A DNA stretch of 39,113 nucleotides from a virus (IMGVR_UViG_3300038701_003367:1-39113); one strand, 5' to 3'. Shown: positions 8,564 to 37,369, numbered from the stretch's first letter. Notes: a model not told the origin generated them from the letters alone. Numbers and translations are program-made.

Positions 8564-8961
8564 CACACAGCCTCCCGTGCATCCCGCGCCACACCAACCG
8601 CAGCGCCCACCCCCAAGGCATCCCCATTGCACTCCCCAGCATCAAGACAAGGTTGCGAAGCAACCGCGGACCCCGCGCACCGCGCGCCCTCTGTTTCCTC
8701 TGCGCCCTCTGTGGCTTCTTCCCCTTCAAGGTGCCCACCATCAAACACCAGCACATCCAGGCTCACCCCCAACGCCCCCGCCACACGCGCCACATTCCGC
8801 GTCTGCGCGAACTGACAATTCCCCGAGAACAGATTCCGAACACACGAAAAGCCCACCCCCGCTTCACCCGCCAACTTCTCAAACGACCAGCCCTTCCGCG
8901 ACAACGCCCCAGAAAGCCCCGCCCCAATCTCATCCGCCGTATGTACCCGAATAATCTCCAT
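8563..8961 (-). CDS. Xre/CI-like repressor with an in-frame repeat insertion
   Basis: 132 residues from ATG 8961. Residues of about 12-72 are a Cro/CI-type helix-turn-helix (LSRKGWSFEKLAGEAGVGFS, then VRNLFSGNCQ, then VARVAGALGVSLDVLVF). It is transcribed away from the + strand regulator at 9075 and faces a shared operator region, the layout of a lysogeny switch. Residues of about 81-105 (EEATEGAEETEG, then AVASQPCLD) are translated dispersed modules, and the remaining Val/Ala tail is low in complexity. No C-terminal peptidase domain is present, so LexA-like self-cleavage is not expected. The start is probably leaderless (see the promoter). Confidence 0.75.
   Translation of the reverse strand: MEIIRVHTADEIGAGLSGALSRKGWSFEKLAGEAGVGFSCVRNLFSGNCQFAQTRNVARVAGALGVSLDVLVFDGGHLEGEEATEGAEETEGARCAGSAVASQPCLDAGECNGDALGVGAAVGVARDAREAV
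8640..8718 (+). repeat. Module inside the repressor gene
   Basis: ATCAAGACAAG flank, hairpin GGTTGC-GAA-GCAACC, CCGCGCACCGCGC, CCCTCTG iteron. In-gene subtype (GACAAG flank). Confidence 0.85.
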
Positions 8962-8996
8962 GCCCAAGTTGTAACACGTTTCAACACGTCTGTCAA
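8961..8996 (-). promoter_or_regulatory. Promoter for the repressor, probably leaderless transcript
   Basis: On the minus strand a perfect -35 TTGACA (8996-8991) is followed by a 17-base spacer and a -10 TACAAC (8973-8968). The expected transcription start falls on the A of the ATG at 8961, so the repressor mRNA would have no leader, as for lambda CI from PRM. The operator candidate lies over its -10. Confidence 0.6.
8969..8984. promoter_or_regulatory. Candidate operator (imperfect dyad)
   Basis: TTGTAACACGTTTCAA is an imperfect palindrome (12 of 16 positions symmetric) that overlaps the -10 and spacer of the repressor promoter. Half-sites of the type AACACGT recur at 8983-8989 and 9033-9039. 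Confidence 0.45.
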
Positions 8997-9030
8997 CAAA
9001 AAAAATGCCTTATACAGGAAACGCCCTGTT

Positions 9031-9044
9031 AAAACACGTGTAAG
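9031..9044. promoter_or_regulatory. Second candidate operator (perfect ACACGTGT core)
   Basis: AAAACACGTGTAAG contains the perfect palindrome ACACGTGT (9034-9041). It lies where a weak promoter for the + strand regulator could run (TGTTAA at 9027-9032 and an AT-rich TGTAAA/TAAATA at 9049-9056), so binding would block the rightward gene. Confidence 0.4.
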
Positions 9045-9074
9045 TTGTTGTAAATAAAGGAGATAAGGTGTACC

Positions 9075-9518
9075 ATGATGGTGGAGAATGTGGTGATGCT
9101 CAAAGACCGGACAGACGAGAAAAGACGACTACGCGCGCAGCTTTACAAAGCATCCGCCTATCACAGCCTGCGCGAAATAGCCGAATCCGTCGGTTGCACC
9201 CCACAAAGTTTGTCCAATTTCAAACAGACCGGACAACTCGGCGCCGAATACTCCCGAAACCTCCTCAGATGGCTCGATAAACACGGCTACACGAAAGACG
9301 ACCAGACCGCCGAAGCCCCCAAGCCCTACGGCGACCCCTCAAACATCGTCGCCAACCGCCTCCAGGCACTCGTCGACACCCTCCGCGACCCCGACCTCCC
9401 CGACTCCACCAAGGTCCGCGCCTTCGCCTCCGAGATTACGCTCTTCCACGAAGAGCTCCAGCCCCTCATAGCCACGCTCGAAAAATCCCTGCAAAACCGC
9501 ACGAAAGAAGCATCCTGA
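9075..9518 (+). CDS. Helix-turn-helix regulator, divergent from the repressor
   Basis: 147 residues. A helix-turn-helix at about residues 28-62 (AYHSLREIAESVGCTPQSLS, then NFKQTGQLG) is followed by a helical C-terminal region (LQALVDTLRDPDLPDSTKVR, ITLFHEELQPL). AAAGGAG at 9056-9062 supports the start at 9075/9078. Opposite orientation to the CI-like gene suggests a Cro/antirepressor-like role or control of the lysogeny arm. The family cannot be named from sequence alone. Confidence 0.7.
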   Translation: MMVENVVMLKDRTDEKRRLRAQLYKASAYHSLREIAESVGCTPQSLSNFKQTGQLGAEYSRNLLRWLDKHGYTKDDQTAEAPKPYGDPSNIVANRLQALVDTLRDPDLPDSTKVRAFASEITLFHEELQPLIATLEKSLQNRTKEAS

Positions 9519-9591
9519 CTCCCAATTCGGCATGAAATCCCACCCTTTCACAGTTTCCTTCCCCAAGAAAACAGTTTAATATAGCAATACG

Positions 9592-9620
9592 ATGACAACG
9601 TAACACATTTACGATACAAT
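9592..9620 (+). promoter_or_regulatory. Promoter for the BamE-like membrane gene
   Basis: ATGACA (9592-9597), 17-base spacer, TACAAT (9615-9620): five of six matches in each box to the sigma70 consensus, in an AT-rich stretch (9519-9676) that contrasts with the GC-rich genome. AAAGGA at 9665 lies six bases before ATG 9677. Confidence 0.6.
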
Positions 9621-9676
9621 CAACGCACAAAAAGATTCTTACCCGCCCCATCATCCGCGCCAACAAAGGAATTCTT

Positions 9677-10414
9677 ATGTCCGACTTCAGAAAAGCATTC
9701 AACTGGGGCGCCGGAATCACCTGCGGCGTCATCGCCGCCATCCTCCTCCTCTTCATCCTCCTCCCCATCACCTGCAACGCCCTTCTCTACGACACCCAGG
9801 ACATGAACACCACCCTCGAAGAACAACAGATGCTCGAAGACATCACTACACTCACGATCATTCAGGAAAAAATCGATAATCTTCGTGGTGACGAGACCTA
9901 CGCTGAAATAGAAGCCAGCTTCGGCGACCCAACACACGCCATCGGCCAACACGTCACCACAGACGGCGACGCCATTCAGTCCTTCGCATGGAAAACCGCC
10001 GCCATGACATTCCAGATCGACTTCAAAAACATGCACCTCCACACCGCGCAAAGGCTCACCGAGATTCCCGCCGATGCCATCACCATGGAAACCTACCGCG
10101 ACCGCATCAGCCAAGACCTGCCCCCCTTCGAAACATCCCCCACCTACGCACCCGACCACACCGAACACTACGCCACCACCACCCCCGAAGAAATCCGCGC
10201 GGACTACAGCAAGACCTATGCAAAGATCCTTCCCGGCGACACCTACCAACACGTCGTCGACCTCCTCGGCGCGCCCCTCCCCAAGACCATGTCCGCCCAA
10301 CTCCCCGGCGGCATCCAGCGCACCACCTACACCTGGCCCCCGCCACACGACTTCCAGATCACCTTCGAAGACAACATCCTCACCCAAACCCCCGAACCAT
10401 GGCCCCAACACTAG
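9677..10414 (+). CDS. Membrane-anchored protein with two BamE/SmpA-like repeats
   Basis: 245 residues. A single N-terminal membrane helix at about residues 11-35 (VIAAILLLFILLPITC) leaves the rest outside the cytoplasm. Two similar modules follow: one around residues 62-115 (YAEIEASFGDPTHAIGQHV, then SFAWK, then FQIDF) and one around 178-236 (KILPGDTYQHVVDLLGAP, then YTWPPP, then FQITFEDN). The pattern gDtyxxVxxlLGaP then xWxxxxxxxxxxFxdn is that of the SmpA/OmlA/BamE beta-alpha fold. It has its own promoter and sits in the lysogeny arm beside the integrase, so it may be expressed from the prophage; superinfection exclusion or envelope modification is inference. Confidence 0.65.
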   Translation: MSDFRKAFNWGAGITCGVIAAILLLFILLPITCNALLYDTQDMNTTLEEQQMLEDITTLTIIQEKIDNLRGDETYAEIEASFGDPTHAIGQHVTTDGDAIQSFAWKTAAMTFQIDFKNMHLHTAQRLTEIPADAITMETYRDRISQDLPPFETSPTYAPDHTEHYATTTPEEIRADYSKTYAKILPGDTYQHVVDLLGAPLPKTMSAQLPGGIQRTTYTWPPPHDFQITFEDNILTQTPEPWPQH

Positions 10415-10448
10415 GCACCCCACCTTGCACCCCACACCCCGCCCCCAA

Positions 10449-10703
10449 GTTCAAGAATGCGCAGCATCACACCTCGTTCCCAAGCTGAAGCTTGGGAACG
10501 CAACTACCAAACGAAGTTCCACTTCGTTACCGCATCCAAGAGCAAGGCGACCGCAGGTCGACGCGCACCCCGCGCGCAGCGCGCCCTCTGTTCCCTCTAC
10601 GCCCTCTGCGGCCAACCCCACAAAGAGCAAGGCCGCCAAAGGCGGACGCGCTAACCGCGCCGCGCGCGCTTCGTGCCCCTTCCCGCCCTTCGTGGTGAAC
10701 CCC
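10449..10703 (+). repeat. Composite module cluster between two plus-strand genes
   Basis: Truncated GAATGC-GCA-GCAT hairpin; long hairpin GTTCCCAAGCT-GAA-GCTTGGGAAC (cut here for length into stem halves); AACGAAGT-TCC-ACTTCGTT; GCGACC-GCA-GGTCG; CCCTCTG iteron; GCCGCC-AAA-GGCGG; CTTCGTG iteron. Same orientation as elsewhere although the genes run the other way. Confidence 0.85.
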
Positions 10704-10704
10704 C

Positions 10705-11886: not shown

Positions 11887-11965
11887 CCCCAATAGCACCC
11901 ACCCCCCAAACTCCCCGCCAATCCACCCACATCCCGAATCCTCTCTCCGGCACCATTCACAAAGA

Positions 11966-12612: not shown

Positions 12613-14778
12613 CTATGCACTCCTCTGCGTCACAGGCACCGCCGCCCGCAAGGTTCCACCACTCGTCACTTCCACATAAGGCCGCCACCGGCCATTCTCC
12701 ACATCAAACACCTGAAACGCCGCCGCCGACGCGCCCACGTAATACGCCGCCTTCTTCGTCTGGTCCGTCGGCGTTCCCCACAGTTCGAAGGTCGCCGACT
12801 CCACCGTCCCCGCCGTCAGGTCGATCTTCACCTGCCGATCACCCCCCGCCGCCAGATAGATCTCCGTCGCGCTCACCACGTCCACCGGCTCCGCGCCCGC
12901 CGATCCGCTGATCGTCGTGTTCTTCAGGTCCAATGCATCCGGGATCCAGATCCGCGCCCGGTTCGCACTCGGCCACATCGCCCGCCAGATCAACGTCGAC
13001 CCCACCCAGAATTCCGTCAGCCCCGGTTCCCGGACAAAACGCACGTTATGCGTCACATCCACGATCGTCTCCAGGCTAAAGTCCGCCGCCGTCCGCACAC
13101 GCCCCGCCGCCTTCCCGTGATACACACCCCCACCATGCACCCCTGCCGGTGCCTCCGTGTTCACCGTCGCCTGCAACACCGTCGTGCTCCCGCTTTCCGT
13201 CGTATCCCCCGACCGATACGCCCGCGCGATCACCCGCACATCCGTCCCATACGCATACGGCCCCAGCACATGCTCCACCACAGCATTCGCGCTCAAGCCA
13301 TTCGACACCCCCAGCGCGATGTCCACCGGCGTATCCGTCGCCGGGTCCGGGTCCGTCCCATCCGTCGTCACATACAGGCGCGCATAATCCCCCGGGCTCG
13401 CATCCTTCCCCAGGTCATAGCTCGCCACCAGGTCCACCTCCCCGCCCGCGATATTCGTCAACGTCACATCCAGCAGATCACTCAAGTCCGGCGTCACATC
13501 GTTCCCGCTCGAATCGATCACCACCGTCTGATACCGCGTATTCAGCCCGATCAACCCATGCGCATTCTGGTCCCGGCACGTCACGTTGATCGTCTTCGTC
13601 CCACTTCCAGGAAGCGCCACCGACACATTCACCGGATACGACGCCCCACTCCCGTCCGGCGTACCATCCCAATCCGGCACCGCGTCCTCGCCCACATGCA
13701 CCCGGTGCACCGCCAGCGCCGTCTCCGCCACCGGATGCTCCCAGCGATACTCATCCCAATACGTCGTCCCGTCATAATCCCACGACCACCGCAACACGTA
13801 CTCGAGTCCCGTCGTCCCCGACACGATGTCCACCGGGAACTCCAGCGTCACCCACACACCACAATTCCCCATGGCCCCGACAGTCCCCCCACTCGCACCC
13901 GTCCCCGCCGTGATACCCGACGTCGGCACCACCCCCGAAGGCACACCAGACCACAGCCCAGACACGATCTCCGTGCCCGAAGCCGCCTGTATCGTGCCCT
14001 CCGCGTCCGCCGCCTCCGTCGCCACCCGCATCCCCGGCACCGGATAAATCACATCATCACTCGCCCCCGCCGCCGCCGTACTCCCCAGCAATGCCCGCCC
14101 CGCCGCGGGCACCGTCAACGTCGTCGCCGTCCGGCTCGTATAGAACACAATCTCCCGCAGCGTCCCCCCGCTCGTCTCGATACGACACCACCCCTGCGCA
14201 GGCCAGCCCAGCGCATCCAGATCCCCCGTCGTCACGACAGACCCCGCGCCCGACGCCGACAGCTGCCCGCCATCGCTCACGCCACTATCGCCCAAGGTCC
14301 CCACATAAACCTTCAGGTTCTCCACAGACAACAGGCTATGGTTATGCAGGATGAACTGCCGAAACAGCGTGAACCCAGACGCCCGCCCCGATTCCGGCAC
14401 CGTCACCGCCCGCGACGGCTGCGTATCCACCGTCATAAACCCGCCCATATTCTCCGAATTAATCCGCGTCACCCGCACCCACGTCCCGTCCGTGTCCCCC
14501 TCGAGCACCTTCGTCTCCCCCGCCGCCACCGCAACACCCGCGCCATACACCGAATCCCCCGGCGCCCGATACGCCAACGTATCCGCATCCGTCGCCTGAA
14601 TAATCCCCTGCCCAATAGCCGTCCGCCCCGCCACCTGCTCCACGATCACATTCGGGATGTCCTGGAAGAACAACGCCGGCCGCCGCACCACCGCCTCCGC
14701 ATGCCGAAGCCCATCAGACGCATCACTCCCCGTCCAATACAACCCCACCGCATCCGCACCCACAAATCCATCCGCCAT
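12613..14778 (-). CDS. Large virion/tail protein, 721 aa
   Basis: A Gly/Thr/Val-rich, beta-dominated protein with no cysteine clusters, signal peptide or membrane helix. The N-terminal 130 residues are conserved-looking (VGLYWTGSDASDGLRHAEAV, VTRINSENMGGFMTVDTQ). The middle (FPVDIVSGTTGLEYVLRWSW, VSVALPGSGTKTINV) resembles immunoglobulin or fibronectin-type sandwich domains. The C-terminal part contains LWGTPTDQTKKAAYYVGASA. The family is not recognised. Position next to the tail-fibre genes suggests a baseplate or receptor-binding component. The gap upstream is filled with repeat modules ending TAACTGGATGATGGGGTTG before the ATG. Confidence 0.65.
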   Translation of the reverse strand: MADGFVGADAVGLYWTGSDASDGLRHAEAVVRRPALFFQDIPNVIVEQVAGRTAIGQGIIQATDADTLAYRAPGDSVYGAGVAVAAGETKVLEGDTDGTWVRVTRINSENMGGFMTVDTQPSRAVTVPESGRASGFTLFRQFILHNHSLLSVENLKVYVGTLGDSGVSDGGQLSASGAGSVVTTGDLDALGWPAQGWCRIETSGGTLREIVFYTSRTATTLTVPAAGRALLGSTAAAGASDDVIYPVPGMRVATEAADAEGTIQAASGTEIVSGLWSGVPSGVVPTSGITAGTGASGGTVGAMGNCGVWVTLEFPVDIVSGTTGLEYVLRWSWDYDGTTYWDEYRWEHPVAETALAVHRVHVGEDAVPDWDGTPDGSGASYPVNVSVALPGSGTKTINVTCRDQNAHGLIGLNTRYQTVVIDSSGNDVTPDLSDLLDVTLTNIAGGEVDLVASYDLGKDASPGDYARLYVTTDGTDPDPATDTPVDIALGVSNGLSANAVVEHVLGPYAYGTDVRVIARAYRSGDTTESGSTTVLQATVNTEAPAGVHGGGVYHGKAAGRVRTAADFSLETIVDVTHNVRFVREPGLTEFWVGSTLIWRAMWPSANRARIWIPDALDLKNTTISGSAGAEPVDVVSATEIYLAAGGDRQVKIDLTAGTVESATFELWGTPTDQTKKAAYYVGASAAAFQVFDVENGRWRPYVEVTSGGTLRAAVPVTQRSA

Positions 14779-14807
14779 CAGTTCAACCCCATCATCCAGT
14801 TACCAAG

Positions 14808-15108
14808 GTTCAAGAATGCAAAGCATTCGCGAACCCCGCGCAAAGCGCGCCACAATCACCCTCACAAGGCACAAGAATGCAAAGCATTCGCGGGACCCGC
14901 GCGCAGCGCGCCATCCAGTCATCCCGTTATCCTGTCCAACCCCACAATGAGCAAGGCCGCCAAAGGCGGACGCGCTAACCGCGCGCAGCGCGCCCTCTGT
15001 TCCCTCTGCGCCCTCTGTGGCCAACCACCAGGAGCAAGGCGACCGCAGGTCGACGCGCGCCCCGCGCCCCGCGCGCTTCGTGCCCCTTCGTGCACTTCGT
15101 GGTCCAAT
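14808..15108 (+). repeat. Composite intergenic module cluster
   Basis: Fills the 333-base gap between two tail genes: two GAATGC-AAA-GCATTC hairpins, ATCC iteron, GCCGCC-AAA-GGCGG, CCCTCTG iteron, GCGACC-GCA-GGTCG, CTTCGTG iteron. No gene seen in the gap. Confidence 0.85.
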
Positions 15109-15111
15109 CCC

Positions 15112-15648
15112 CTACACCGCATCCACCACCACCTGTCCCCCAGCCTTATCCCACGCCACCGTCACCGCAGGCGCCTCCGGATTCCGCATCACCGTAAACG
15201 TAAACTCCTGCGCGTCGCCCTCATAATCACGCGCATCGATCGGCGTCACCCGATACTGCGCCGCCGTCCCATCCCCCAGCACCGTCGTCCGGAACTGGAT
15301 ATACCCCGACCCATCATTCCGCACCGGCGATCCCGACGCCTCCGCCCACGCGCTCCCCGTGTAATACTCCACCTTCCAATGTTCAACATCCGACCGCCCC
15401 CGCCACTGCAGGATTCCATACGCCGGATTCGCCACCGTCGCCGCCGTCCCCGTCGAATCCGCGTCCCGCACCTCAATGATCGGCGGTTCCGTCTCCCCAT
15501 CATGCTCCAGGGTAATCTCCGTCAGCTCCGTCTGCTGCAACAGGAACTCCCCATCCGCGCCATACACATCAAACGGCGCCGTCCCGCTCCAGCTATACCG
15601 ATGCCCAAAGCCACCCACCGCCTCCACCGCTGTAATTGCCACCGCCAT
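15112..15648 (-). CDS. Putative tail protein with fibronectin-like beta fold
   Basis: 178 residues from ATG 15648, overlapping the upstream methyltransferase TGA (TGATG). Regular beta strands (YSWSGTAPFDVYGADGEFLL, WKVEYYTGSAW, QYRVTPIDARDYEGDAQEFT) suggest a fibronectin type III or immunoglobulin-like virion domain. No exact family. It ends TAG directly against GGGATTGGACCACGAAG, a module boundary. Confidence 0.55.
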   Translation of the reverse strand: MAVAITAVEAVGGFGHRYSWSGTAPFDVYGADGEFLLQQTELTEITLEHDGETEPPIIEVRDADSTGTAATVANPAYGILQWRGRSDVEHWKVEYYTGSAWAEASGSPVRNDGSGYIQFRTTVLGDGTAAQYRVTPIDARDYEGDAQEFTFTVMRNPEAPAVTVAWDKAGGQVVVDAV

Positions 15649-16709
15649 CAGAACAACCTCCCCTGCGCCACGTCCGCCTTCAGGCGCGCCAATGCACCGG
15701 AATGATTCTTCGAACACATCTCCACACCAACGAATTGCCGTCCGGTCTCATGGCATGCCACCGCCATACTCCCACCACCCGCAAAGGGATCAAACACAAT
15801 CGCATCCTCCCGCGTACTCACTTCCAGAATGTGCCGCAGCAATGCCTGCGGCTTCTCACACGGATGCTTGCCCGGATACGATTGCACCGGCTCAAAGTCC
15901 CACACATCGGACCATTGCTTCGACGCGCTCACAGCGAAAGGCCGCCGCAGGTCCTCGTACTCCCGCCGCAGGTCCTCGTACTCCCGCCGCAGGTACGCGC
16001 CGCGATCAACACCGTGGCGATTCGCGTAGTCCTGCAACTTCGCATAGTTCTCCTCAGTCGGCAATGCCCATTGGGATCGGCTCATATAGTGCGACGCCAT
16101 CTGCGTCCCCGTGGCCTTCGTGACATCCTTCGCGACTAACCCCGCGCGCGCCCACTCATCCGCCAGGTACTTCCGCAAGGGCTCAAAAACGAACCCCCGT
16201 AGTTCATCGCACTTCGCCACATACCCCGCCTCACCCTTCGCAATATTGTCCGCACCATAATGCTCCGCGAAGATCACCCGCTCCGATGCGGGGAAAAAAT
16301 TGCGCAGTGCTTCCTTCTCCACATGGTTCCCCCGCGTCGCCAACTTTCCACCCACGGCACCCTTCCGCCACACGATAGGACTCAACACGTTAAACCAGGA
16401 CCGGATCACCACCTCGACCCGTGCCGCCATCGACACACTTGCGAAAAAGTAGAGTGATCCATTCGGCCTTAGAATGCGCTGAAACTCCACGCACAGATCA
16501 CCCACCCATGCGAGAAACGCCGCCGGATCGTCCCATTGCCGGTCCCAGGGCTCATCGACCACCCGGAAGTACGGCGGATCCGTCACAATCGCATCCACGC
16601 TATTCGATTCCATACCTGCCATCACATCCCGACAATCACCCAACCACAGCGCATGGCGGCCTACATCAAACCGCACCGGCGCCGTCATCTCCACCGCCAC
16701 CGCCATCAC
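15648..16709 (-). CDS. Site-specific DNA methyltransferase (adenine-N6 or cytosine-N4, beta class)
   Basis: 353 residues. The catalytic motif DPPY is at residues 44-47 (motif IV) and precedes the AdoMet-binding motif DPFAGGGSMAVA near the C-terminus (motif I), the beta-class order. LWLGDCRDVM at 21-30 is the usual motif before DPPY. Residues of about 262-278 contain a tandem heptapeptide repeat, LRREYEDLRREYEDLRR, encoded by a 21-nt direct repeat, which I have seen as a feature of related phage methylases. It is expected to modify phage DNA against host restriction. It is unusual to find it embedded between tail genes. Confidence 0.85.
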   Translation of the reverse strand: MMAVAVEMTAPVRFDVGRHALWLGDCRDVMAGMESNSVDAIVTDPPYFRVVDEPWDRQWDDPAAFLAWVGDLCVEFQRILRPNGSLYFFASVSMAARVEVVIRSWFNVLSPIVWRKGAVGGKLATRGNHVEKEALRNFFPASERVIFAEHYGADNIAKGEAGYVAKCDELRGFVFEPLRKYLADEWARAGLVAKDVTKATGTQMASHYMSRSQWALPTEENYAKLQDYANRHGVDRGAYLRREYEDLRREYEDLRRPFAVSASKQWSDVWDFEPVQSYPGKHPCEKPQALLRHILEVSTREDAIVFDPFAGGGSMAVACHETGRQFVGVEMCSKNHSGALARLKADVAQGRLF

Positions 16710-19662: not shown

Positions 19663-19730
19663 CACTCAACTCCTCGAACGCCATGTAATTCAAGTATCGC
19701 CTTGCCCCATTCCTCAAGCTGCTCACTCAT
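19662..19730 (-). CDS. Tiny coupled gene, 22 aa
   Basis: MSEQLEEWGKAILELHGVRG plus two residues. It starts directly after a GGGATGACAGGATG repeat end and finishes with TGATG overlapping the next gene. A short acidic amphipathic helix is predicted. It could be a leader peptide that recruits ribosomes after the repeat cluster 19731-20018. Confidence 0.3.
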   Translation of the reverse strand: MSEQLEEWGKAILELHGVRGVE

Positions 19731-20018
19731 CCTGTCATCCCGTTATCCTGTCCAATTCCACCAGGAGCAAGGCGACCGCAGGTCGACGCGCGCCCCGCGC
19801 GCAGCGCGCCCTCTGTTCCCTCTGCGCCCTCTGTGGCCAACCCACCAAGAGCAAGGCCGCCAAAGGCGGACGCGCTACCCGCGCGCAGCGCGCCCTCTGT
19901 TCCCTCTGCGCCCTCTGTGGCTAACCCATCAGGAGCAAGGCGACCGCAGGTCGACGCGCGCACCGCGCAAAGCGCGCCACCCTTCCCCCCTTCGTGCCCT
20001 TCGTGCCCTTCGTGGTTA
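19731..20018 (+). repeat. Composite intergenic module cluster
   Basis: ATCC iteron, then three hairpin units (GCGACC type, GCCGCC type, GCGACC type) alternating with two CCCTCTG iterons, ending with a CTTCGTG iteron touching the tape measure stop codon. Confidence 0.85.
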
Positions 20019-21787: not shown

Positions 21788-21978
21788 GCCCAATCCCATC
21801 ATCCAGTTATCCTGTCCAGTTCCAAAGAGCAAGGCGACCGCAGGTCGACGCGCTAACCGCGCACCGCGCGCCCTCTGTTCCCTCTGCGCCCTCTGTGGCT
21901 AACCCACAAAGAGCAAGGCGACCGCAGGTCGACGCGCGACCCGCGCTTCGTGTCCCTTCGTGCCCTTCGTGGTCCAAA
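21788..21978 (+). repeat. Composite intergenic module cluster
   Basis: ATCC iteron just before the tape measure start, hairpin GCGACC-GCA-GGTCG, CCCTCTG iteron, a second GCGACC hairpin, CTTCGTG iteron. Confidence 0.85.
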
Positions 21979-22825: not shown

Positions 22826-23411
22826 CCGCCGCGCCGCGTTCCCAAGCGCCAACTCAGAAACGCAACGACCAAACAAAGCCCCAGCTTCGCCACCCCACCA
22901 AGTTCAAGAATGCGCAGCATTCGCGAACCCCGCGCACCGCGCGCCCTCTGTTCCCTCTGCGCCCTCTGCGGCCAACCCCATCCAGGAGCAAGGCCGCCAA
23001 AGGCGGACGCGCTCACCGCGCCACGCGCGCCCTCTGTTCCCTCTGCGCCCTCTGCGGCCAACCCCATCCAGGAGCAAGGCCGCCAAAGGCGGACGCGCTC
23101 ACCGCGCCACGCGCGCCCTCTGTTCCCTCTGCGCCCTCTGTGGCCAACCCACCAGGAGCAAGGCGACCGCAGGTCGACGCGCTAACCGCGCGCAGCGCGC
23201 CCTCTGTTCCCTCTGCGCCCTCTGTGGCCACCCCACCAAGAGCAAGGCGACCGCAGGTCGACGCGCTAACCGCGCGCAGCGCGCCCTCTGTTCCCTCTGC
23301 GCCCTCTGTGGCCACCCCACCAAGAGCAAGGCGACCGCAGGTCGACGCGCTAACCGCGCGCAGCGCGCCACCCTTCCCCCCTTCGTGCGCTTCCTGCCCT
23401 TCGTGGTTCAA
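22826..23411 (+). repeat. Largest module array (six hairpin units, five iterons)
   Basis: Fills the 633-base gap between the tail chaperone and the 265-aa gene. A decayed GTTCCCAAGC hairpin, one GAATGC unit, two near-identical GCCGCC units of about 87 bases, three near-identical GCGACC units of about 83 bases, each but the last followed by a CCCTCTG iteron, then CTTCGTG. No gene supported in the gap. Confidence 0.9.
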
Positions 23412-23417
23412 AAATCC

Positions 23418-23740: not shown

Positions 23741-24394
23741 TCAGTTTTTTTCCTCTTCCTCCGCCGCCGACGCACTCAACCCATTCACATCCAGGATCAC
23801 ATCCAGCAACCGATCCAGCGCCGCCGCACTCTTCTGCTGCAGCACCGCCACATCAGAATCACGGAACACCCGATTCCCTTCCGCGTCACACACCCCCAGC
23901 GCCACCAGCCGCTCCCGCGTCTCATTCGCCCCCTTGCCCGCGCCCTGCACATACGACTCATACGCCGCCCGCTCCGCGCCCGTCATCGCACGGACATAGA
24001 ACGTCCCACCCCACTCCGGCACAGCCACCGCCACCGGCGTCAAATCCTCCGCACCCAACGCCATATTCCGCAACCGCGCCGCATCAAACCCCACCACCGT
24101 CCCCACATCAGGAGCACCGCCCGCCGCGCCAGACACACCCTTATCAGGACAAGAATGCGAAGCATTCGCGGACCCCGCGCAAAGCGCGCCCTCTGTTCCC
24201 TCTGCGCCCTCTGTGGCTACCCCACCAGGACAAGGTTGCGAAGCAACCGCGGACCCCGCGCGCAGCGCGCCCTCTGTTCCCTCTGCGCCCTCTGTGGCCA
24301 ACCCTTCAGGACAAGGTTGCGAAGCAACCGCGGACCCCGCGCGCAGCGCGCCACCCTTCCCCCCTTCGTGCTCTTCGTGCCCTTCGTGGTTCAA
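23741..24394 (-). CDS. Tail assembly chaperone, upstream (G-like) frame, with repeat-encoded N-terminus
   Basis: The conserved part is the last 107-120 residues: LTPVAVAVPEWGGTFYVRAM, then TGAERAAYE, as in tail chaperones of lambda-like and Gram-positive siphoviruses. It ends EEEEKN followed by TGA. The open frame runs back through three repeat modules to TTG 24394; alternative starts are ATG 24064 or GTGs near 24100. All hairpins in this stretch are of the GACAAG-flanked subtype seen only inside genes, which favours translation of at least part of it. The C-terminal codons GAA AAA AAC TGA contain the canonical A-AAA-AAC slippery heptamer. Confidence 0.75.
   Translation of the reverse strand: MNHEGHEEHEGGKGGALRAGSAVASQPCPEGLATEGAEGTEGALRAGSAVASQPCPGGVATEGAEGTEGALCAGSANASHSCPDKGVSGAAGGAPDVGTVVGFDAARLRNMALGAEDLTPVAVAVPEWGGTFYVRAMTGAERAAYESYVQGAGKGANETRERLVALGVCDAEGNRVFRDSDVAVLQQKSAAALDRLLDVILDVNGLSASAAEEEEKN
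23744..23750 (-). promoter_or_regulatory. -1 ribosomal frameshift site A AAA AAC
   Basis: On the minus strand the zero-frame codons are GAA AAA AAC TGA, giving the canonical slippery heptamer A-AAA-AAC one codon before the stop. The -1 frame continues CTG AGG GCG TCG and reads without a stop into the T-like frame ending at 23418. This is the conserved arrangement of siphovirus tail chaperone genes. Confidence 0.85.
24146..24394 (+). repeat. Module cluster within/at the start of the tail chaperone gene
   Basis: Hairpins GAATGC-GAA-GCATTC and twice GGTTGC-GAA-GCAACC, all with GACAAG flanks, alternating with two CCCTCTG iterons, then CTTCGTG units next to the upstream stop. Confidence 0.85.
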
Positions 24395-24395
24395 C

Positions 24396-24665
24396 CTACT
24401 TCTCCTTCTTCAATTCCGCCTTCGCCTCCGCCATCACCTGCTTCGCCGAAGCCTCCTGCGCCGCAGCCGCCTGCGCCGCAATCTCCTCACGCGCCAGCGC
24501 ATCCTCCTCCTTCTCCACGATCCCCGACCGCGCATACTTCTCCGCCAACACCGCCGGCAGATCCGCCGTCACCCCACGCACCAACACCCGCGGATTCCCC
24601 TTCACATCACGCGGCCCCAAGTCCGGCGCCACACTCTTCAAGATCCGACATGCAACAGTACCCAT
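24396..24665 (-). CDS. Hypothetical tail-region protein, 89 aa
   Basis: Starts MGTVACRILKSVAPDLGPRD behind a clear AAAGGAGATTGAG ribosome-binding site, with a helical Ala/Glu/Lys-rich C-terminal half (EEDALAREEIAAQAAAAQEA, then AKAELKKEK). It lies between the tail tube and the tail chaperones. A small virion or assembly protein is likely. No family recognised. Confidence 0.65.
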   Translation of the reverse strand: MGTVACRILKSVAPDLGPRDVKGNPRVLVRGVTADLPAVLAEKYARSGIVEKEEDALAREEIAAQAAAAQEASAKQVMAEAKAELKKEK

Positions 24666-24689: not shown

Positions 24690-24893
24690 CGCGCATCCAG
24701 TTCATACCTTCCAATCCAAGTTCAAGAATGCGCAGCATTCGCGAACCCCGCGCAAAGCGCGCCCTCTGTTCCCTCTGCGCCCTCTGTGGCTAACCACCAG
24801 GAGCAAGGCGACCGAAGGTCGACGCGCTCCCCGCGCGCAGCGCGCCCTCTGTGCCCTCTGCGCCCTCTGTGGCTAACCCTTCGTGCTTCAACA
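24690..24893 (+). repeat. Composite intergenic module cluster
   Basis: CGCGCCACGCGCG, GAATGC-GCA-GCATTC, CCCTCTG iteron, GCGACC-GAA-GGTCG (the only GAA-loop copy of this stem), second CCCTCTG iteron, short CTTCGTG remnant before the tail tube stop. Confidence 0.85.
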
Positions 24894-24895
24894 CC

Positions 24896-26851: not shown

Positions 26852-26867
26852 CAGCCACACCCCCCAT

Positions 26868-27254
26868 CAAGTTCAAGAATGCGCAGCATTCGCGAACCCC
26901 GCGCAAAGCGCGCCCTCTGTTCCCTTTGCGCCCTCTGTGGCCAACCACCAGGAGCAAGGCCGCCAAAGGCGGACGCGCGACCCGCGCAAAGCGCGCCACA
27001 ATCACCCCCACAAGGCACAAGAATGCAAAGCATTCGCGAACCCCGCGCAAAGCGCGCCATCCAGTCATCCCGTTATCCTGTCCAACCCCACAATGAGCAA
27101 GGCCGCCAAAGGCGGACGCGCTAACCGCGCAAAGCGCGCCCTCTGTTCCCTCTGCGCCCTCTGTGGCTACCCCACCAGGAGCAAGGCGACCGCAGGTCGA
27201 CGCGCGACCCGCGCACCGCGCGCTTCGTGCCCCTTCGTGCCCTTCGTGGTTCAA
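26868..27254 (+). repeat. Composite intergenic module cluster
   Basis: Fills the gap between connector genes. Its parts closely match the cluster at 14808-15108: GAATGC-GCA, CCCTCTG, GCCGCC-AAA, GAATGC-AAA, ATCC iteron, GCCGCC-AAA, CCCTCTG, GCGACC-GCA, CTTCGTG. Confidence 0.85.
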
Positions 27255-27259
27255 AATCC

Positions 27260-28380: not shown

Positions 28381-28845
28381 TTATTTCTTCTTCGCTTCCG
28401 CTTCCGCTTCCGCCGCAGCAACCAGCGCCGCGACCTCCTCCGCACTTGCGCCGTCCGTCAGGTCCCGCGGAATATCCAACGCCGCCGCCTTCTCGATCAG
28501 CGCCACCAGGTTCAACGGTTCCGACTTCTCCGCGTCACCACCAGCGCCGTCCGTTTCCCCTTCGTGATCTTCGTGCCCTTCGTGGTTCAAAGGCTCCTCC
28601 ACCTTCTCTGCCTTCTCCTTCACCACCGGCACCGCCACCGCCAGATCACCATCGAAGCCCGCAGGCGCAGCAATCGCGCCACGACGCACCCAGCGCGCCA
28701 CCTGGTCTGGACGCAGCGCAACGCGCTCGCCCTTCCGGATCGCTTCATCGGGTCCCGTCTCCTGCGGATAGGTATCCCGAAGAAACAGGTGTTTCGCCTC
28801 CCCGCCCTTCTTCGCCGCAGCCGCCTTCTTCTTTGCACTTGGCAT
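28381..28845 (-). CDS. Hypothetical head-region protein, with in-frame iteron
   Basis: 154 residues with a Lys/Ala-rich start (MPSAKKKAAAAKKGGEAKHL) and a middle that resembles FluMu/Mu N-terminal-like segments (GERVALRPDQVARWVRRGAI). Residues of about 85-96 (LNHEGHEDHEGE) are a CTTCGTG iteron read in frame in a charged linker. The C-terminal helix (EEVAALVAAAEAEAEAKKK) is low complexity. A hairpin lies just upstream (28862-28894). Function unknown; a head-associated role is inferred from position. Confidence 0.55.
   Translation of the reverse strand: MPSAKKKAAAAKKGGEAKHLFLRDTYPQETGPDEAIRKGERVALRPDQVARWVRRGAIAAPAGFDGDLAVAVPVVKEKAEKVEEPLNHEGHEDHEGETDGAGGDAEKSEPLNLVALIEKAAALDIPRDLTDGASAEEVAALVAAAEAEAEAKKK
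28558..28592 (+). repeat. CTTCGTG iteron inside the 28381-28845 gene
   Basis: CTTCGTGAT/CTTCGTGCC/CTTCGTGGT, read in frame as NHEGHEDHEGE. Confidence 0.8.
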
Positions 28846-30318: not shown

Positions 30319-30540
30319 GTCTTGCACCACCGCGACGCACACAAAAAGCCCGCCGCGAAACCTGATCCACCTGCGCACATCGCACATGGATCCGCTTTCA
30401 CGCCGGGCTCGGCCAGCGCCTAAACTATGTCCAGTCCCCACACAACGCGGTCGCGCGAAGCAGGAAACCTCAATCAATACCCATTACATAACACCCATCC
30501 GGCATCATGTCCAGACCCATATTCCGAAACTCGGAAACAC
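30319..30540 (-). other. Leader region of the capsid gene
   Basis: About 220 bases without repeats or a convincing gene between the module cluster at 30541 and the capsid hairpin. It contains a possible weak minus-strand promoter (TGGACA, 19-base spacer, TGTAAT near 30510-30480) and a small CCGA-GTT-TCGG hairpin near its start. Reading the capsid frame further upstream (to 30385) has no ribosome-binding site. Confidence 0.3.
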
Positions 30541-30736
30541 CACCCAAGAGCAAGGCCGCCAAAGGCGGACGCGCGACCCGCGCCCCACACCTCGTTCCCA
30601 AGCTTCAGCTTGGGAACGCAACTACCGAACGAAGCCCCAGCTTCGTCACCCCATCCAAGTTCAAGAATGCGCAGCATTCGCGAACCCCGCGCAAAGCGCG
30701 CCCTCTGTTCCCTCTGCGCCCTCTGTGGCCAACCAC
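30541..30736 (+). repeat. Composite intergenic module cluster
   Basis: GCCGCC-AAA-GGCGG; long hairpin with stem GTTCCCAAGC and loop TTC; ACGAAGC-CCC-AGCTTCGT; GAATGC-GCA-GCATTC; CCCTCTG iteron ending at the S49 protease stop. Confidence 0.85.
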
Positions 30737-30737
30737 C

Positions 30738-31680: not shown

Positions 31681-31744
31681 ACCACATCCATGTTCAAGAA
31701 TGCGCAGCATTCGCGAACCCCGCGCGCAGCGCGCTTCGTGGTCC
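31681..31744 (+). repeat. Short module (hairpin only)
   Basis: GAATGC-GCA-GCATTC followed by CCGCGCGCAGCGCGC and a single CTTCGTGGT unit; the CCCTCTG iteron is missing, as if deleted. Confidence 0.8.
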
Positions 31745-31746
31745 AA

Positions 31747-32540: not shown

Positions 32541-34370
32541 CTATTCCGCCAACACGGGCTCACCAGTGCCCGCGTACTGTTTCAAGTCTTCCAGGATCGA
32601 CGTTGCCATCAGCGGCGCAAGTGATTCATCGCGCGCGGCTTCGGGGTGCTGAAACAAATGACGACCACTGATCACCACCTGTTCCGAAACACGATCGTTG
32701 ACCAGCCGCCCGACCATATCTGCATCAGCGTCGACCAGCTGACCCGCGCCCACCAGCGCCGGACGCATACACGCATCCACGAACGACTGGTGCTCCGGAC
32801 TTCCAATAAACGCATCCACCCAAGCCCGCCAGGCATGGGAATCGTCCTGCAACTTCTCCCACTTCCGCGCCGCGGCCCGATCTTCCTTCCGCCACACCCG
32901 CGCAATCCCATCCGCCAGCACCGGCACAAACACCCGCACATCAGGACAAGAATGCGACGCATTCACAGACCCCGCGCAAAGCGCGCCCGCTGTGTCTTCT
33001 TCACCACCAGGAGCAAGGCCGCCATCGGCGGACGCGCGCCCCGCGCGCAGCGCGCCCTCTGTTCCCTCTGCGCCCTCTGTGGCTAACCCTTCGTGGTTCC
33101 CATCCCCATCATCATCCGGCGTCCCGCGCTTCCGCCCGCCCGACGCCACACCCTGCTTCCGACTCCGCAGATCCGCCGTGTCCAGTGTCGCCAGGTTCGT
33201 CGCAACCATGTGCTTGTCGCCGTCCCGTCCGATACCGTTCTCGCCCAGCTTCTGCCGCACTTCGTTCGTGGTGTACGCACCCACGCCGAACATCTTCGCC
33301 AGGAAGTCCCCGAACGCCTGCTGGTCCCCGCGCAACAGCGACTCCATGTCAAAGGCGTAATAGAGATCCCCGGACCCGTCCAGCAACTTCACGTCAATCT
33401 CATTCGAGATTGCCCGGGTATACGGCACAACCGCCGTCATGATGAAGCGCCGCATGTCGTCCTCGAGTTTCGAGTATGGCGTGTTTTCCATGTCACTCAG
33501 GAAACTCGAAGGGACCCCGGTATAGCGACTGATCTCCCGAATCTGGAAGGTGCGTGTATCGTTCAGCAGCGCATCATGGGGCGATCCACTGATCGACTTG
33601 TATTCCATGTTCGACGGCAGGACCGCCAGTCGGTGTTTCTTTCTTCCGCCCCACCACCCGTTCGCCTGAACTTCGAATTCCTTGCGCTGCTCAGGCGTCA
33701 TTTTCTTGTCGGGAACCAGGATGCCGCCGGGCATGGCGTTGTTCCCGAGATAGGTCTGCTGGAACTGGTCCGCGCCCAGCGCAAGCCCAAGCGCCTCACG
33801 ACCAACCCGGGAAAGTCCCAGCCCGCCCAGGCCATCGAAACTCATGGACGGCAGGTGAAAGATGTCCTCCGGCGGAAAATCAGCGTATGCCCCGCGATCA
33901 TTGTGGACACGATAGAACAACTGCGCAGCATCATCCTGGGTGCGCAACTTCTCCACATGCTTCCCCACGATCGGCCACAGCCCCACCGCCTGCGTCCCCG
34001 CGCGCTCAATCTCCCAGAATCCGTCGCCACCCATCACGGTGTTGATCATCAGGGAACGCCACAGGGAGAAGGCGGTGATCTCGGTATTCGGCTGCATACT
34101 CAGCAACCGGGAAACCGGGTGCGCGGGTAGCGCCTCGGAATTGCCGTCAGGCTTTCGCTGATGGACGCACTTGTCCATCATGGCAATAATGTTCGCGTAG
34201 GTCAGCGCAGCGGCATAGGCCGCGGAATGCGCCAGCGCCCGCTCCTCGTCGATACGAACGCCCGCGGTCGTTTGACGCGGCACACCGATCGGACCGTAGA
34301 CACCCCCGCTGCCCGGGTATTGGCCCCGGTGCGTGAACGCCGCCGCCATCATTTTTACAAACTCAAACAA
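32541..34370 (-). CDS. Portal protein, HK97 type, with in-frame repeat module
   Basis: 609 residues. Residues of about 1-400 are a normal HK97 portal (PAHPVSRLLSMQPNTEITAF, then LWRSLMINTVMGGDGFWEIE, then FQIREISRYTGVPSSFLSDM then ENTPYSKLEDDMRRF). Residues of about 425-473 (GNHEGLATEGAEGTEGALRA, then GSVNASHSCPD) are translated dispersed modules including two mini-hairpins. Then comes a C-terminal domain of about 135 residues (FVPVLADGIARVWRKEDRAA and onward). The insertion is located at the linker between portal core and C-terminal domain, so the protein is probably still functional. Portal forms the dodecameric DNA gate. Confidence 0.9.
   Translation of the reverse strand: MFEFVKMMAAAFTHRGQYPGSGGVYGPIGVPRQTTAGVRIDEERALAHSAAYAAALTYANIIAMMDKCVHQRKPDGNSEALPAHPVSRLLSMQPNTEITAFSLWRSLMINTVMGGDGFWEIERAGTQAVGLWPIVGKHVEKLRTQDDAAQLFYRVHNDRGAYADFPPEDIFHLPSMSFDGLGGLGLSRVGREALGLALGADQFQQTYLGNNAMPGGILVPDKKMTPEQRKEFEVQANGWWGGRKKHRLAVLPSNMEYKSISGSPHDALLNDTRTFQIREISRYTGVPSSFLSDMENTPYSKLEDDMRRFIMTAVVPYTRAISNEIDVKLLDGSGDLYYAFDMESLLRGDQQAFGDFLAKMFGVGAYTTNEVRQKLGENGIGRDGDKHMVATNLATLDTADLRSRKQGVASGGRKRGTPDDDGDGNHEGLATEGAEGTEGALRAGRASADGGLAPGGEEDTAGALCAGSVNASHSCPDVRVFVPVLADGIARVWRKEDRAAARKWEKLQDDSHAWRAWVDAFIGSPEHQSFVDACMRPALVGAGQLVDADADMVGRLVNDRVSEQVVISGRHLFQHPEAARDESLAPLMATSILEDLKQYAGTGEPVLAE
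32938..33100 (+). repeat. Module inside the portal gene
   Basis: GACAAG-flanked GAATGC-GAC-GCATTC, a degenerate iteron (CCCGCTGTGTCTTCTTC), GCCGCC-ATC-GGCGG, CCCTCTG iteron, one CTTCGTGGTT unit. In frame. Confidence 0.85.
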
Positions 34371-34474
34371 TCACGCCCCGAAGTCACCGCCCCCAATGAA
34401 CACAACAAAGACCCCGCGCAGCGCCATCTACACCACCCCAGCATCCGTGGTGTATCAAACAACCGGTCCGCTGT
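34371..34474. other. Gap between zinc-ribbon gene and portal
   Basis: An 18-codon minus-strand frame (34427-34371, MALRGVFVVFIGGGDFGA) ends overlapping a possible TTG start of portal. Otherwise nothing recognisable; no dispersed module here. Confidence 0.25.
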
Positions 34475-34681: not shown

Positions 34682-34841
34682 ACCGCAACCCTTTCTCCCC
34701 CGCCTTCTTTTCCCTGCATGTCGCGCAGATTCCGAATGTGGCAAACTCCAGCCCCACGGATTGCACCATGCGCTCAAGCACGACGGATACAACCGCCGTG
34801 TAATCACCGCACCAGTCACAGACCCCCGCGTATTCCGCCAT
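34608..34841 (-). CDS. Cysteine-pair protein, 77 aa
   Basis: MAEYAGVCDWCGDYTAVVSV ... FGICATCREKKAGE: two CXXC pairs 30 residues apart in a likely zinc-binding fold. The start overlaps the terminase stop (TGATG). The last roughly 24 codons overlap the following zinc-ribbon gene in another frame, so the true functional part is likely the first 53 residues. Function unknown. Confidence 0.5.
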   Translation of the reverse strand: MAEYAGVCDWCGDYTAVVSVVLERMVQSVGLEFATFGICATCREKKAGEKGLRYGPDDGAVCGGRASVPQVRGAAKE

Positions 34842-37369
34842 CAACCCGACCCTCCACCAATCGTCAGGAACTCCGACGCCATGGGCCCGCTCTCACCATG
34901 CGACCAGGACGCGCGCCCGGTCGACATGATCATCGCCACGGGTCCGTCGATCTTCTTCCGGCCCTTCTGTTTGTCCGGCTTGATCAACCCACCACTGTCC
35001 ACCAGGGTGACAACGTTCCCGATCTCCCAGTTCATCACCGGATTGTTGTTGTGGAGCAGCCGCCCCTGAATAATCAGCCGCTCGGTCGCGCGCATCGGTG
35101 CGTTGATTGATATCGCACCGAACCGGTGCTTCAACATCTCGATCCCGTGATCTTCGTCCAACTCCCGCACCAGCCGCGTGGCCATGTGCGGGTCAAAGCA
35201 GATCTCGTCCACCTCGTAGTCCTGGCACAGTTCAACAATGCGATCGCGCACGAAATCCAGATCCACCACCGGCCCGGGTGTCGCCTCGATCCACCCCTCC
35301 TCGATCCAGTGGTGATACGGCACCAGGTGCTTCTTCGACAGTGCCTTCACCTTGTCCCCCGGCATGAAATGCCACGCCAGCAACCAGAAGTAGGGACTGC
35401 CCGCGCTCGGCTCGAAGGTCAGCGTGAAGCTCGTCAGATCGTCGGTCGCACTCAGGTCCAACCCACCCCAGCACCGGCGACCCTTCAGATCCGCCGGCTT
35501 GAATGTCATCGCGCAGGCGGACCACTTGTCATAGTCAACCCAGCGATCCTCCGTTTGGCTCCAGTCGTTCAGCCGGTACCGGCGAAACTGCGCCCAGTCG
35601 TTCCCGCCCAGCGCATGCGCGGCACGGCACAGCGCGCCAAAACGTTCCGGCGCAATGATGTCCCCCCACCCCGGATTCACACGGGCCCACACGGCGGGAT
35701 CCATCGGGTCCTCACCCTTCTGGATGCCATACACCCGCGCCAACATCGTCGGGTCGACCACGCGCCCTTCGATGATCGATACGGCCTTGTCATGCACCAG
35801 CCAGCCGATCGTCTCAATGTCGTATTCGCCCGCCGTCGTGATCACGAAGAACAACGGCTGCTTCCGGGATTCCCCGCCATAGTACAGCGTATCGTACAGT
35901 TTCCGCGTCTTGTGGACGTGCATCTCGTCAATGTTTGCGAAGGAAATGTTCAGCCCTTCGTGCGATTCAACCGCCGCGCTCAACACTTCCTGCTTGCTGA
36001 AATTGTGCCGCCAGTGCATCTGCTTCTTGCTCGGTACGATGCGGATGCATGCATCCAGGACCGGACTCTGTTTGACGATCCGGGTGCTCTCCTCGAAGAC
36101 CATCCCGGCCTGCTTCGAATCGACCGCCGCGTTGTAGCACTCCGCCGCGTTCTCCCCGTCCGCGATCAGCATGTAGGGATTCACACCGGAGACGAGGGTG
36201 CTCTTGCCGTTCTTCTTCGGCACCTCGACGTACACGAACCAGACCAACCGCAGCCCGCTCGCCTGACGCCAGCCGAAGGTCGGCCACACGACGTCCTCCC
36301 GCTGCCACCGTGCCGCGACCAGTGGAAGCCCGCCATACGCCCCCTTCGACTGCACACAGAAAAGGCGCAGGAAGTCCGTCGGACGCTGCGCCAATACCCC
36401 ATCGAAATACACGCCCTCCGGCGCGCCCTCCGGCAACTCCGGCACAAACGCCGAAGCCCCCGCCATCCCCCGAATCCCTACACCAGAAACACCACCAGAC
36501 CCCGCACCCCGCGCGCCCGCTGTGGCCACGCCATCAAGACAAGAATGCGAAGCATTCGCGGTCCCCGCGCGCAGCGCGCCCTCTGTTCCCTCTGCGCCCT
36601 CTGCGGCTACCTCATCAGGACAAGGTTGCGCAGCAACCGCGGACCCCGCGCACAGCGCGCCACCCTTCCCCCCTTCGTGCTCTTCGTGGTGAACCCAGTC
36701 CCGCACCCCCGCCCAGGCCGCGCCTTCGAAGACACACGCCGCCCACGGTGCCTCCCTAAACTCATCCAGACGCCACCCCGCGTCCCGCGCCGCCAAACAC
36801 TCCCGACCATAAAACCGCTGATACGCCTCGTTGTCCGCATCACCCCACGCCGTCACCCCACCGGCATCACTCTCCGCCTTTAGCGCCGCCCACTGCTTCC
36901 GGATCGTCGCCCAGTCCGGCGCCCGCGTGTGAAAACCCGCCGCCAGGCGACCCTGACAGAATCGCACCAGGCCAAGGTCACGCGCGCCTCGAAACCCATC
37001 GGACGCGCCCGCCCCGTCCCCGATGGCATCATCACCGTCGGAATCAGCACCAACACGCCCAGCAGCACCAGCACCAGCCGTATCACATTCCAGATCATCC
37101 GCACAAACACCTCCACCCGATAGACGACCCCCAGCGCCCTTTTCTTGCACACCGCCACCGATATGCACCCCAGGCACACCACAACTGATCGCCCAGTCCG
37201 GCGCCCGCTCACTGCGCACCCCCAGCGCCCGCGCCACCGCCTCCGCACCCTCCAGAAACGGCCACACATGGCCCGACCACAAGAACGCCCGCCACGCCAC
37301 GGAAACGCCCGAACCAGACCCGCGCCCCCCACGCCGTCCAACTACATAAACACTCTTCTGCTTCGCCAC
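34841..37369 (-). CDS. terL: Terminase large subunit, with repeat-containing N-terminal extension
   Basis: Residues of about 305-842 are a standard large terminase: Walker A VPKKNGKS (383-390), Walker B ISFANIDEMH with D481/E482, coupling motif FFVITTAG, and nuclease acidic residues at D638 (GGLDLSATDD) and D726 (ICFDPHMA). Residues of about 228-285 are translated dispersed modules of the in-gene subtype. Upstream of them, residues of about 135-225 look coding (VRFCQGRLAAGFHTRAPDW, EAYQRFYGRECLAARDAGW) but are not part of a usual terminase. Codon composition suggests that about residues 95-134 are not coding in this frame, so the true start is probably GTG at 36967. It packages DNA into the head by ATP hydrolysis and cuts concatemers. 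Confidence 0.9.
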   Translation of the reverse strand: MAKQKSVYVVGRRGGRGSGSGVSVAWRAFLWSGHVWPFLEGAEAVARALGVRSERAPDWAISCGVPGVHIGGGVQEKGAGGRLSGGGVCADDLECDTAGAGAAGRVGADSDGDDAIGDGAGASDGFRGARDLGLVRFCQGRLAAGFHTRAPDWATIRKQWAALKAESDAGGVTAWGDADNEAYQRFYGRECLAARDAGWRLDEFREAPWAACVFEGAAWAGVRDWVHHEEHEGGKGGALCAGSAVAAQPCPDEVAAEGAEGTEGALRAGTANASHSCLDGVATAGARGAGSGGVSGVGIRGMAGASAFVPELPEGAPEGVYFDGVLAQRPTDFLRLFCVQSKGAYGGLPLVAARWQREDVVWPTFGWRQASGLRLVWFVYVEVPKKNGKSTLVSGVNPYMLIADGENAAECYNAAVDSKQAGMVFEESTRIVKQSPVLDACIRIVPSKKQMHWRHNFSKQEVLSAAVESHEGLNISFANIDEMHVHKTRKLYDTLYYGGESRKQPLFFVITTAGEYDIETIGWLVHDKAVSIIEGRVVDPTMLARVYGIQKGEDPMDPAVWARVNPGWGDIIAPERFGALCRAAHALGGNDWAQFRRYRLNDWSQTEDRWVDYDKWSACAMTFKPADLKGRRCWGGLDLSATDDLTSFTLTFEPSAGSPYFWLLAWHFMPGDKVKALSKKHLVPYHHWIEEGWIEATPGPVVDLDFVRDRIVELCQDYEVDEICFDPHMATRLVRELDEDHGIEMLKHRFGAISINAPMRATERLIIQGRLLHNNNPVMNWEIGNVVTLVDSGGLIKPDKQKGRKKIDGPVAMIMSTGRASWSHGESGPMASEFLTIGGGSG
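36500..36706 (+). repeat. Module cluster inside the terminase gene
   Basis: Degenerate CGCCCGCTGTGGC unit, GACAAG-flanked GAATGC-GAA-GCATTC, CCCTCTG iteron, GACAAG-flanked GGTTGC-GCA-GCAACC, CTTCGTGCT/CTTCGTGGT iteron. In frame. Confidence 0.85.
36880..37098 (-). CDS. Possible small membrane protein overlapping the terminase N-terminus
   Basis: 72 codons in a frame different from the terminase. It starts MIWNVIRLVLVLLGVLVLIP at ATG 37098, 10 bases after GGAGGT, with a clear single membrane helix and G/C-ended codons in its first half; the terminase frame is T-ended in the same place. The last roughly 25 residues are Arg-rich and may be shadow coding. I favour a real small gene just before terminase, ending within it. 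Function unknown. Confidence 0.35.
   Translation of the reverse strand: MIWNVIRLVLVLLGVLVLIPTVMMPSGTGRARPMGFEARVTLAWCDSVRVAWRRVFTRGRRTGRRSGSSGRR

What the first reader, a model, noticed from the sequence alone, without database searches (positions are those of the whole stretch)
8640..36640. Copies inside genes are a different subtype from copies between genes
The GAATGC and GGTTGC hairpins located in reading frames (8650, 24155, 24234, 24313, 32951, 36545, 36623) all have the flank GACAAG and mostly GAA loops followed by CGCGGACCC. Those between genes have TTCAAG or GCACAAG flanks with GCA or AAA loops and mostly CGCGAACCC. In the frame used by the genes, the TTCAAG flank reads TTGAAC, with a TGA stop, while GACAAG reads TGTCCT/TGTCTT (Cys-Pro/Leu). 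So either stop-bearing copies were purged from genes or a coding-compatible subtype exists.
Basis: seen in the sequence. Interest (0 to 1): 0.82.

Follow-up and report, generated by a model that had tools for sequence, protein, structure and literature searches.

The report
Phage hairpin repeats: coding and spacer versions
This bacterial virus carries more than 40 copies of a two-hairpin DNA repeat, nearly all packed between its genes, and one sub-version that has no stop codon in one reading frame is the only type-A version that also sits inside genes such as the portal gene, much like the known "selfish" palindromes of Rickettsia genes but here in a phage.

Summary
Of 16 full hairpin copies, 7 read TTGTC(C/T) after the hairpin on the gene strand (GACAAG), 7 read TTGAAC (TTCAAG) and 2 read TTGTGC (GCACAAG). 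Spacer and loop changes are linked to the flank, so these are sublineages. The coding placement is only partly right. The portal copy is truly inside a gene, in the linker before its C-terminal part. The repressor copy is read through at the C-terminus. The two TerL copies lie upstream of the TerL core, in frame with coding sequence above them, but that region is frameshifted. The three at 24.2 kb lie between genes and are translated only if a TTG at the array's first codon, which has a Shine-Dalgarno site, is used. All four TTGTC loci share one reading phase. In that phase TTGAAC copies carry TGA; in TTGTC copies it is the only reliably open phase. A start module, CACGAAGG, lies in five more gene positions, in the same phase. 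Best reading: a phage-borne REP/RPE-like palindrome array; copies in genes must be stop-free. No relative carrying the repeat was found, so the subtype/context link (p about 0.02) rests on one genome.

The parts
32942..33101 (-). In-gene array S-B-A1 in the portal gene (32541-34370): linker between portal core and C-terminal helical part; peptide NHEGLATEGAEGTEGALRAGRASADGGLAPGGEEDTAGALCAGSVNASHSCPD
   Evidence: Codon bias in the same frame on both sides; no stop in that frame; four relatives have core, acidic linker and helical C-terminus
36535..36694 (-). Array S-A1'-A1 upstream of the TerL core, in frame with TerL and with the coding stretch above it
   Evidence: gene status uncertain because of frame switches at about 36973 and 37159
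24145..24394 (-). Array S-A1'-A1'-A1 between a gene ending at 24396 and the tail assembly chaperone core; possible N-terminal extension from TTG 24394
8640..8715 (-). K block + A1' unit read as the C-terminal tail of an XRE-type repressor ORF (8563-8967)
4460..4616 (-). Intergenic array S-B-A2, upstream of the gene at 4100-4420, downstream of an endolysin gene
14800..15112 (-). Intergenic array S-B-B-G-A3-A2 before gene 12613-14778
22895..23417 (-). Intergenic array S-B-B-B-B-B-A2 (84-86 nt units)
24715..24895 (-). Intergenic array S-B-A2
26866..27256 (-). Intergenic array S-B-B-G-A3-B-A2
30540..30737 (-). Intergenic array A2-N-B before the capsid gene
31690..31745 (-). Intergenic array S-A2 before the S49 protease gene
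10450..10697 (-). Intergenic array S-B-B-N-A2 (last A2 truncated)
19729..20016 (-). Intergenic array S-B-B-B-G after the tape measure gene
21793..21975 (-). Intergenic array S-B-B-G before the tape measure gene
28556..28590 (-). Start module S alone, in frame in the middle of gene 28381-28845 (PLNHEGHEDHEGET)
   Evidence: codon bias 1.26 upstream and 1.16 downstream in the same frame; translation
1785..1806 (-). Start module S inside gene 1591-2151, same phase (DLHHEGHEEE)
   Evidence: codon bias 1.42 upstream and 1.21 downstream
1600..1635 (-). Start module S at the C-terminus of gene 1591-2151, same phase (LNHEGHEEHEG)
528..563 (-). Start module S in the C-terminal tail of gene 498-1430 (phrog_2045), same phase
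2713..2733 (-). Start module S fragment at the C-terminus of ORF 2707-3357, same phase (WNHEGETD)

Best explanation
The repeats are one family of composite palindromic elements, mostly built as ordered arrays: start module S (CACGAAGG)n, then internal two-hairpin units B, then a terminal two-hairpin unit A. All point the same way as the genes, and they fill most gaps between genes of this phage. The terminal unit exists as sublineages. A2 (TTGAAC) has a TGA in one phase and ends most intergenic arrays, usually as the last unit before the next start codon. A1 (TTGTCC) lacks that TGA and is reliably open only in that phase. Elements that land in or next to reading frames survive only when read in a stop-free phase, in linkers or protein ends. 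That gives the link between A1 and coding context. Shown: anatomy, orientation, linkage of sites, open phases, portal placement, compensatory stem changes. Inferred: that insertion or copying followed by selection against stops produced the pattern, and that the palindrome rather than the peptide is what is maintained. The mobilising machinery is unknown.
For: All 71 counted module instances lie on the minus strand and none on the plus strand, as do all called coding segments. 37 of 39 first hairpins are followed by a perfect second hairpin, of four stem types. Stem pairing in A units is 100%, with two pairs changed on both sides and 0 of 500 shuffles as high on cells changed or covariation score. 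Phase openness of each unit. All four A1 loci are in the same phase as the adjoining gene. Of eight in-gene S modules counted, seven are in that phase, p = 0.0026 against one third and 0.035 against one half. The portal array lies in the variable linker: relatives L133 and L136-L138 have core, acidic linker and helical C-terminus. The portal model has no secondary structure across 405-480 and helices at 481-600, though at low confidence. In-gene elements lie outside the conserved domains found. Literature precedent: REPs inside ORFs, more than half as dimers or groups, many at ORF ends (PMC3733652); RPEs in frame in unrelated genes (PMC10969869).
Against: Only one genome is available, with four independent A1 loci, one of which (24 kb) is probably intergenic and one (TerL) uncertain. 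Stop avoidance does not explain why A2 is never in genes in its two open phases, nor why A3, open in the coding phase, is not in genes. Insertion is not shown: no empty site in a close relative. Homology of the portal C-terminus to relatives is not significant by itself. RNA folding of whole arrays is not clearly better than shuffled sequence (z -0.14, -2.02, -0.74, -0.02).
Confidence: 0.6

Rival explanations
1. Descent and small numbers: A1 is simply one local sublineage of intergenic arrays. Its overlap with ORFs is mostly an artefact of a GC-rich sequence with few stops; only the portal copy is a real in-gene insertion.
For: Three of seven copies lie between genes, two more are upstream of the TerL core, and one is a C-terminal tail. 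Under the strictest count p = 0.18.
Against: All four A1 loci are in the same phase as the adjacent gene with no stop (1/81 by phase alone if phases are equally likely). S modules show the same phase bias in five further gene positions. TTG 24394 has the only well-placed in-frame Shine-Dalgarno site for the chaperone.
Confidence: 0.22
2. One reading: a dedicated coding-compatible subtype maintained because its peptide (ATEGAEGTEGALRAGSAVASQPCPD) is useful or at least kept, for example as a linker.
For: The peptide is nearly the same at four loci; tandem A1 units are exactly 81 nt (27 codons) and the first-hairpin spacing in the portal array is 69 nt.
Against: Compensatory stem changes alter the peptide (N to V, H to Q, S to P) while keeping the hairpin. 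Codon-bias scores inside the arrays are near zero. Intergenic arrays often also have spacings divisible by 3 (84, 81, 63).
Confidence: 0.08
3. Regulatory reading: intergenic A2 units act as start-associated elements (translation insulation by TGA, or leader function) of the phage late genes, and A1 is the version used where translation must run through.
For: A2 is the last unit of nearly every array that has it, close to the next start codon; all units are co-directional with genes; start-associated repeats of unknown function exist in Cluster K mycobacteriophages (PMC3203893).
Against: Distances from A2 to the start codon vary widely; several arrays have no A2; whole-array RNA folding is not exceptional.
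Confidence: 0.1

Closest known systems
Rickettsia palindromic elements (RPE)
   Same: Palindromic repeats found both between genes and in frame within unrelated genes, encoding a short conserved peptide, tolerated at permissive sites (PMC10969869)
   Different: Here in a phage, as tandem two-hairpin units of 81-86 nt in ordered arrays; most copies intergenic; no sequence match to an RPE family was tested; separate open-phase and stop-bearing sublineages
REP elements (GTAG- and CGTC-tagged palindromes), including intragenic REPs of Opitutus terrae and Rickettsia conorii
   Same: Short palindromes in high copy, mostly between co-directional or convergent genes, sometimes supplying stop codons, sometimes inside ORFs as clusters of 43-82 amino acids (PMC3733652)
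   Different: Stems of 5-6 bp with 3-nt loops and no GTAG tag; B units do have CGTC just 5' of the stem but not the 8-9 bp stem, 4-5 nt loop or CCA tail described for CGTC families
Start-associated and extended start-associated sequences of Cluster K mycobacteriophages
   Same: Phage-borne repeats with inverted-repeat parts just upstream of start codons, nearly all one orientation (PMC3203893)
   Different: Those are 13 bp plus 17 bp inverted repeats, not tandem arrays and not described inside genes in the passages read

Membership tests
CGTC-tagged REP (PMC3733652) | CGTC tag at one end of the palindrome | tested here: met
   B units read GCGCGTC + GACCTGCGGTC or CGCC...GGCG; A units lack it
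CGTC-tagged REP (PMC3733652) | Stem of 8-9 bp, loop of 4-5 nt, CCA-like tail | tested here: not met
   Stems of 5-6 bp with 3-nt loops, followed by CTTG
GTAG-tagged REP | GTAG tag at one end of the palindrome | tested here: not met
   No GTAG adjoining either hairpin in the listed units
REP with RAYT transposase | Associated Y1 (RAYT) transposase gene | tested here: inconclusive
   No transposase among the window ORFs scanned; not every ORF was scanned; host genome not available
Rickettsia palindromic element | In-frame residence in unrelated protein genes | tested here: met
   Portal, repressor tail and five S modules in other genes read in one phase
Rickettsia palindromic element | Homologous gene without the element (empty site) | tested here: inconclusive
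   Portal relatives at about 24% identity have a different linker at the same place; no close relative found
Rickettsia palindromic element | Sequence match to a described RPE family | not tested
   RPE consensus sequences were not at hand; the window has no Rfam hit
Start-associated sequences of phages | Fixed position next to start codons of a subset of genes | tested here: inconclusive
   A2 is usually the last unit before the next gene but at varying distance

The most novel reading that the evidence does not exclude
A repeat family with two sublineages of opposite reading-phase behaviour: one (TTGTCC) reliably open only in the phase that the other (TTGAAC) closes, the first spreading through coding sequence and the second confined to gene borders, so that one palindromic element has split into a coding and a spacer form within a single phage genome.
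Probability: 0.15. Interest if true: 0.7.

Novelty: new variant of a known kind. Interest (0 to 1): 0.5.

Why it matters
Intragenic palindromes such as RPEs are known from bacteria; my searches turned up no paper describing such arrays through a phage's structural gene cluster, including inside a portal gene. If relatives confirm the split into an open-phase and a stop-bearing sublineage, this would be a compact test case for how selfish DNA adapts to, or is filtered by, reading frames.

Tried and rejected
Eight viral-contig scans found no contig with the repeat. Plasmid and phage DNA searches gave nothing useful. Samples of Myxococcota, Poribacteria, Chloroflexota and Acidobacteriota gave only chance-level hits; genomes of the Planctomycetota/Verrucomicrobiota kind, which I suspected from memory, could not be reached. 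Rfam has no match. Transcript hairpin function was not supported by folding. 'All seven copies are inside genes' was rejected after codon-bias and gene-end analysis. Membership in CGTC REPs was considered because B units carry the CGTC tag, but stem, loop and tail do not fit. The AlphaFold model of the portal is of low confidence (mean pLDDT 42, six sequences) and is used only as weak support.

Full report
The window is a complete IMG/VR record of 39,113 bases. It carries an HK97-type structural cluster: TerL, portal, S49 protease, major capsid protein, head-tail adaptors, tail chaperone, tape measure protein, an endolysin and two DNA methyltransferases. A codon-bias model trained on the homology-supported genes calls coding sequence only on the minus strand.

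On the gene strand a full unit is a block CCACAGAGGGCGCAGAGGGAACAGAG, a first hairpin GCGCGC-NNN-GCGCG, a short spacer, a second hairpin and CTTGNNC. 37 of 39 first hairpins are followed by a perfect second hairpin with a 3-nt loop, of four stem types: GAATGC, GGTTGC, CGACC and CCGCC. The CGACC and CCGCC units (type B) are internal. The GAATGC and GGTTGC units (type A) usually come last. Most arrays begin with a start module S made of CACGAAGGG repeats, and most of those with an A2 unit read S, B repeated, A2. All counted modules lie on the minus strand and none on the plus strand. Arrays fill most gaps between genes.

Type A has three flanks. A2 (TTGAAC, TTCAAG on the plus strand) has 7 full copies and one truncated copy, all between genes. 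A3 (TTGTGC) has 2 copies, between genes. A1 (TTGTCC or TTGTCT, GACAAG) has 7 copies at four loci. Spacer and loop changes are linked to the flank, and the GGTTGC stem occurs only in A1. So the subtypes are real sublineages, not single point changes.

Coding context. The portal array (S-B-A1) is a true in-gene case: strong codon bias in the same frame on both sides, no stop, and four relatives (L133, L136-L138) show a portal core, a variable acidic linker and a helical C-terminal part at that place. The pairwise and profile tests of the C-terminal part alone are not significant. An AlphaFold model of low confidence shows no secondary structure over the array and helices after it. The repressor copy at 8651 forms a C-terminal tail. 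The TerL array lies in front of the TerL core; some relatives start right there and others have about 45 more residues. It is in frame with coding signal upstream, but that signal changes frame twice, so fusion is uncertain. The three copies at 24.2 kb lie between a gene that stops at 24396 and the tail chaperone core. However, TTG 24394, the first codon of the array, has AGGAG at 7 nt, the only well-placed in-frame Shine-Dalgarno site before the core, so they may be an N-terminal extension.

Reading phase. All four A1 loci are read in one phase (ATEGAEGTEGALRAGSAVASQPCPD or ...ANASHSCPD). In that phase A2 has TGA. A1 is closed in a second phase by TCCTGA and often in the third by TAG, so the shared phase is the only one that A1 keeps reliably open. 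A2 is open in the two others. The start module alone lies in five further gene positions (557, 1629, 1800, 2727, 28584), all in the same phase, with one exception at 2106. Counting these with the portal and TerL start modules, 7 of 8 share the phase, p = 0.0026 against one third.

What is maintained. The GAATGC/GCATTC and GGTTGC/GCAACC stems differ by two double compensatory changes. A-unit pairing is 100%, and the covariation score is above all 500 shuffles. In coding copies these same changes replace N by V, H by Q and S by P. This favours the palindrome over the peptide as the thing kept. Folding of whole arrays as RNA is not exceptional, so a DNA-level role is at least as likely as a transcript structure.

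Comparison. The system works like Rickettsia palindromic elements and intragenic REPs (PMC10969869; PMC3733652). It meets in-frame residence in unrelated genes but fails the stem, loop and tail features of CGTC REPs and the GTAG tag. For phages the nearest published case I found is the start-associated sequences of Cluster K mycobacteriophages (PMC3203893).

Verdict on the finding: subtype differences are real and the stop logic is correct for one phase, but only the portal copy, plus the repressor tail, is securely inside a gene. The association is significant only when TerL is counted (p about 0.02; strict count p = 0.18).

Noticed in passing
window 557, 1629, 1800, 2727, 28584 (minus strand): The start module CACGAAGGGCACGAAG lies alone inside five gene positions, always in the same phase (NHEGHEEHEG).
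   Followed up: yes
window 36973-37302 (minus strand): Coding signal upstream of terL switches frame twice, suggesting a decayed gene or assembly indels.
   Followed up: partly
window 7740, 23440, 27290, 4640 (minus strand): Several intergenic arrays open with TGAGGATTTTGAACC or close variants; in the commonest form TGA occurs twice in one phase, so the array start may supply the stop of the upstream gene, as reported for GTAG REPs.
   Followed up: partly
window 10475-10500, 30593-30618: A second palindrome CGTTCCCAAGCTTCAGCTTGGGAACG occurs twice, next to A2 units.
   Followed up: no
window 6895-6910, 14925-14940, 19740-19755, 21800-21815, 27075-27090 (minus strand): A further shared module GGACAGGATAAC(G/T)GGATGACTGGATGG lies between B units and A3 units or gene starts.
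   Followed up: no
window 16706-19429 (minus strand): A 907-aa protein with NHL repeats in the tail region.
   Followed up: no
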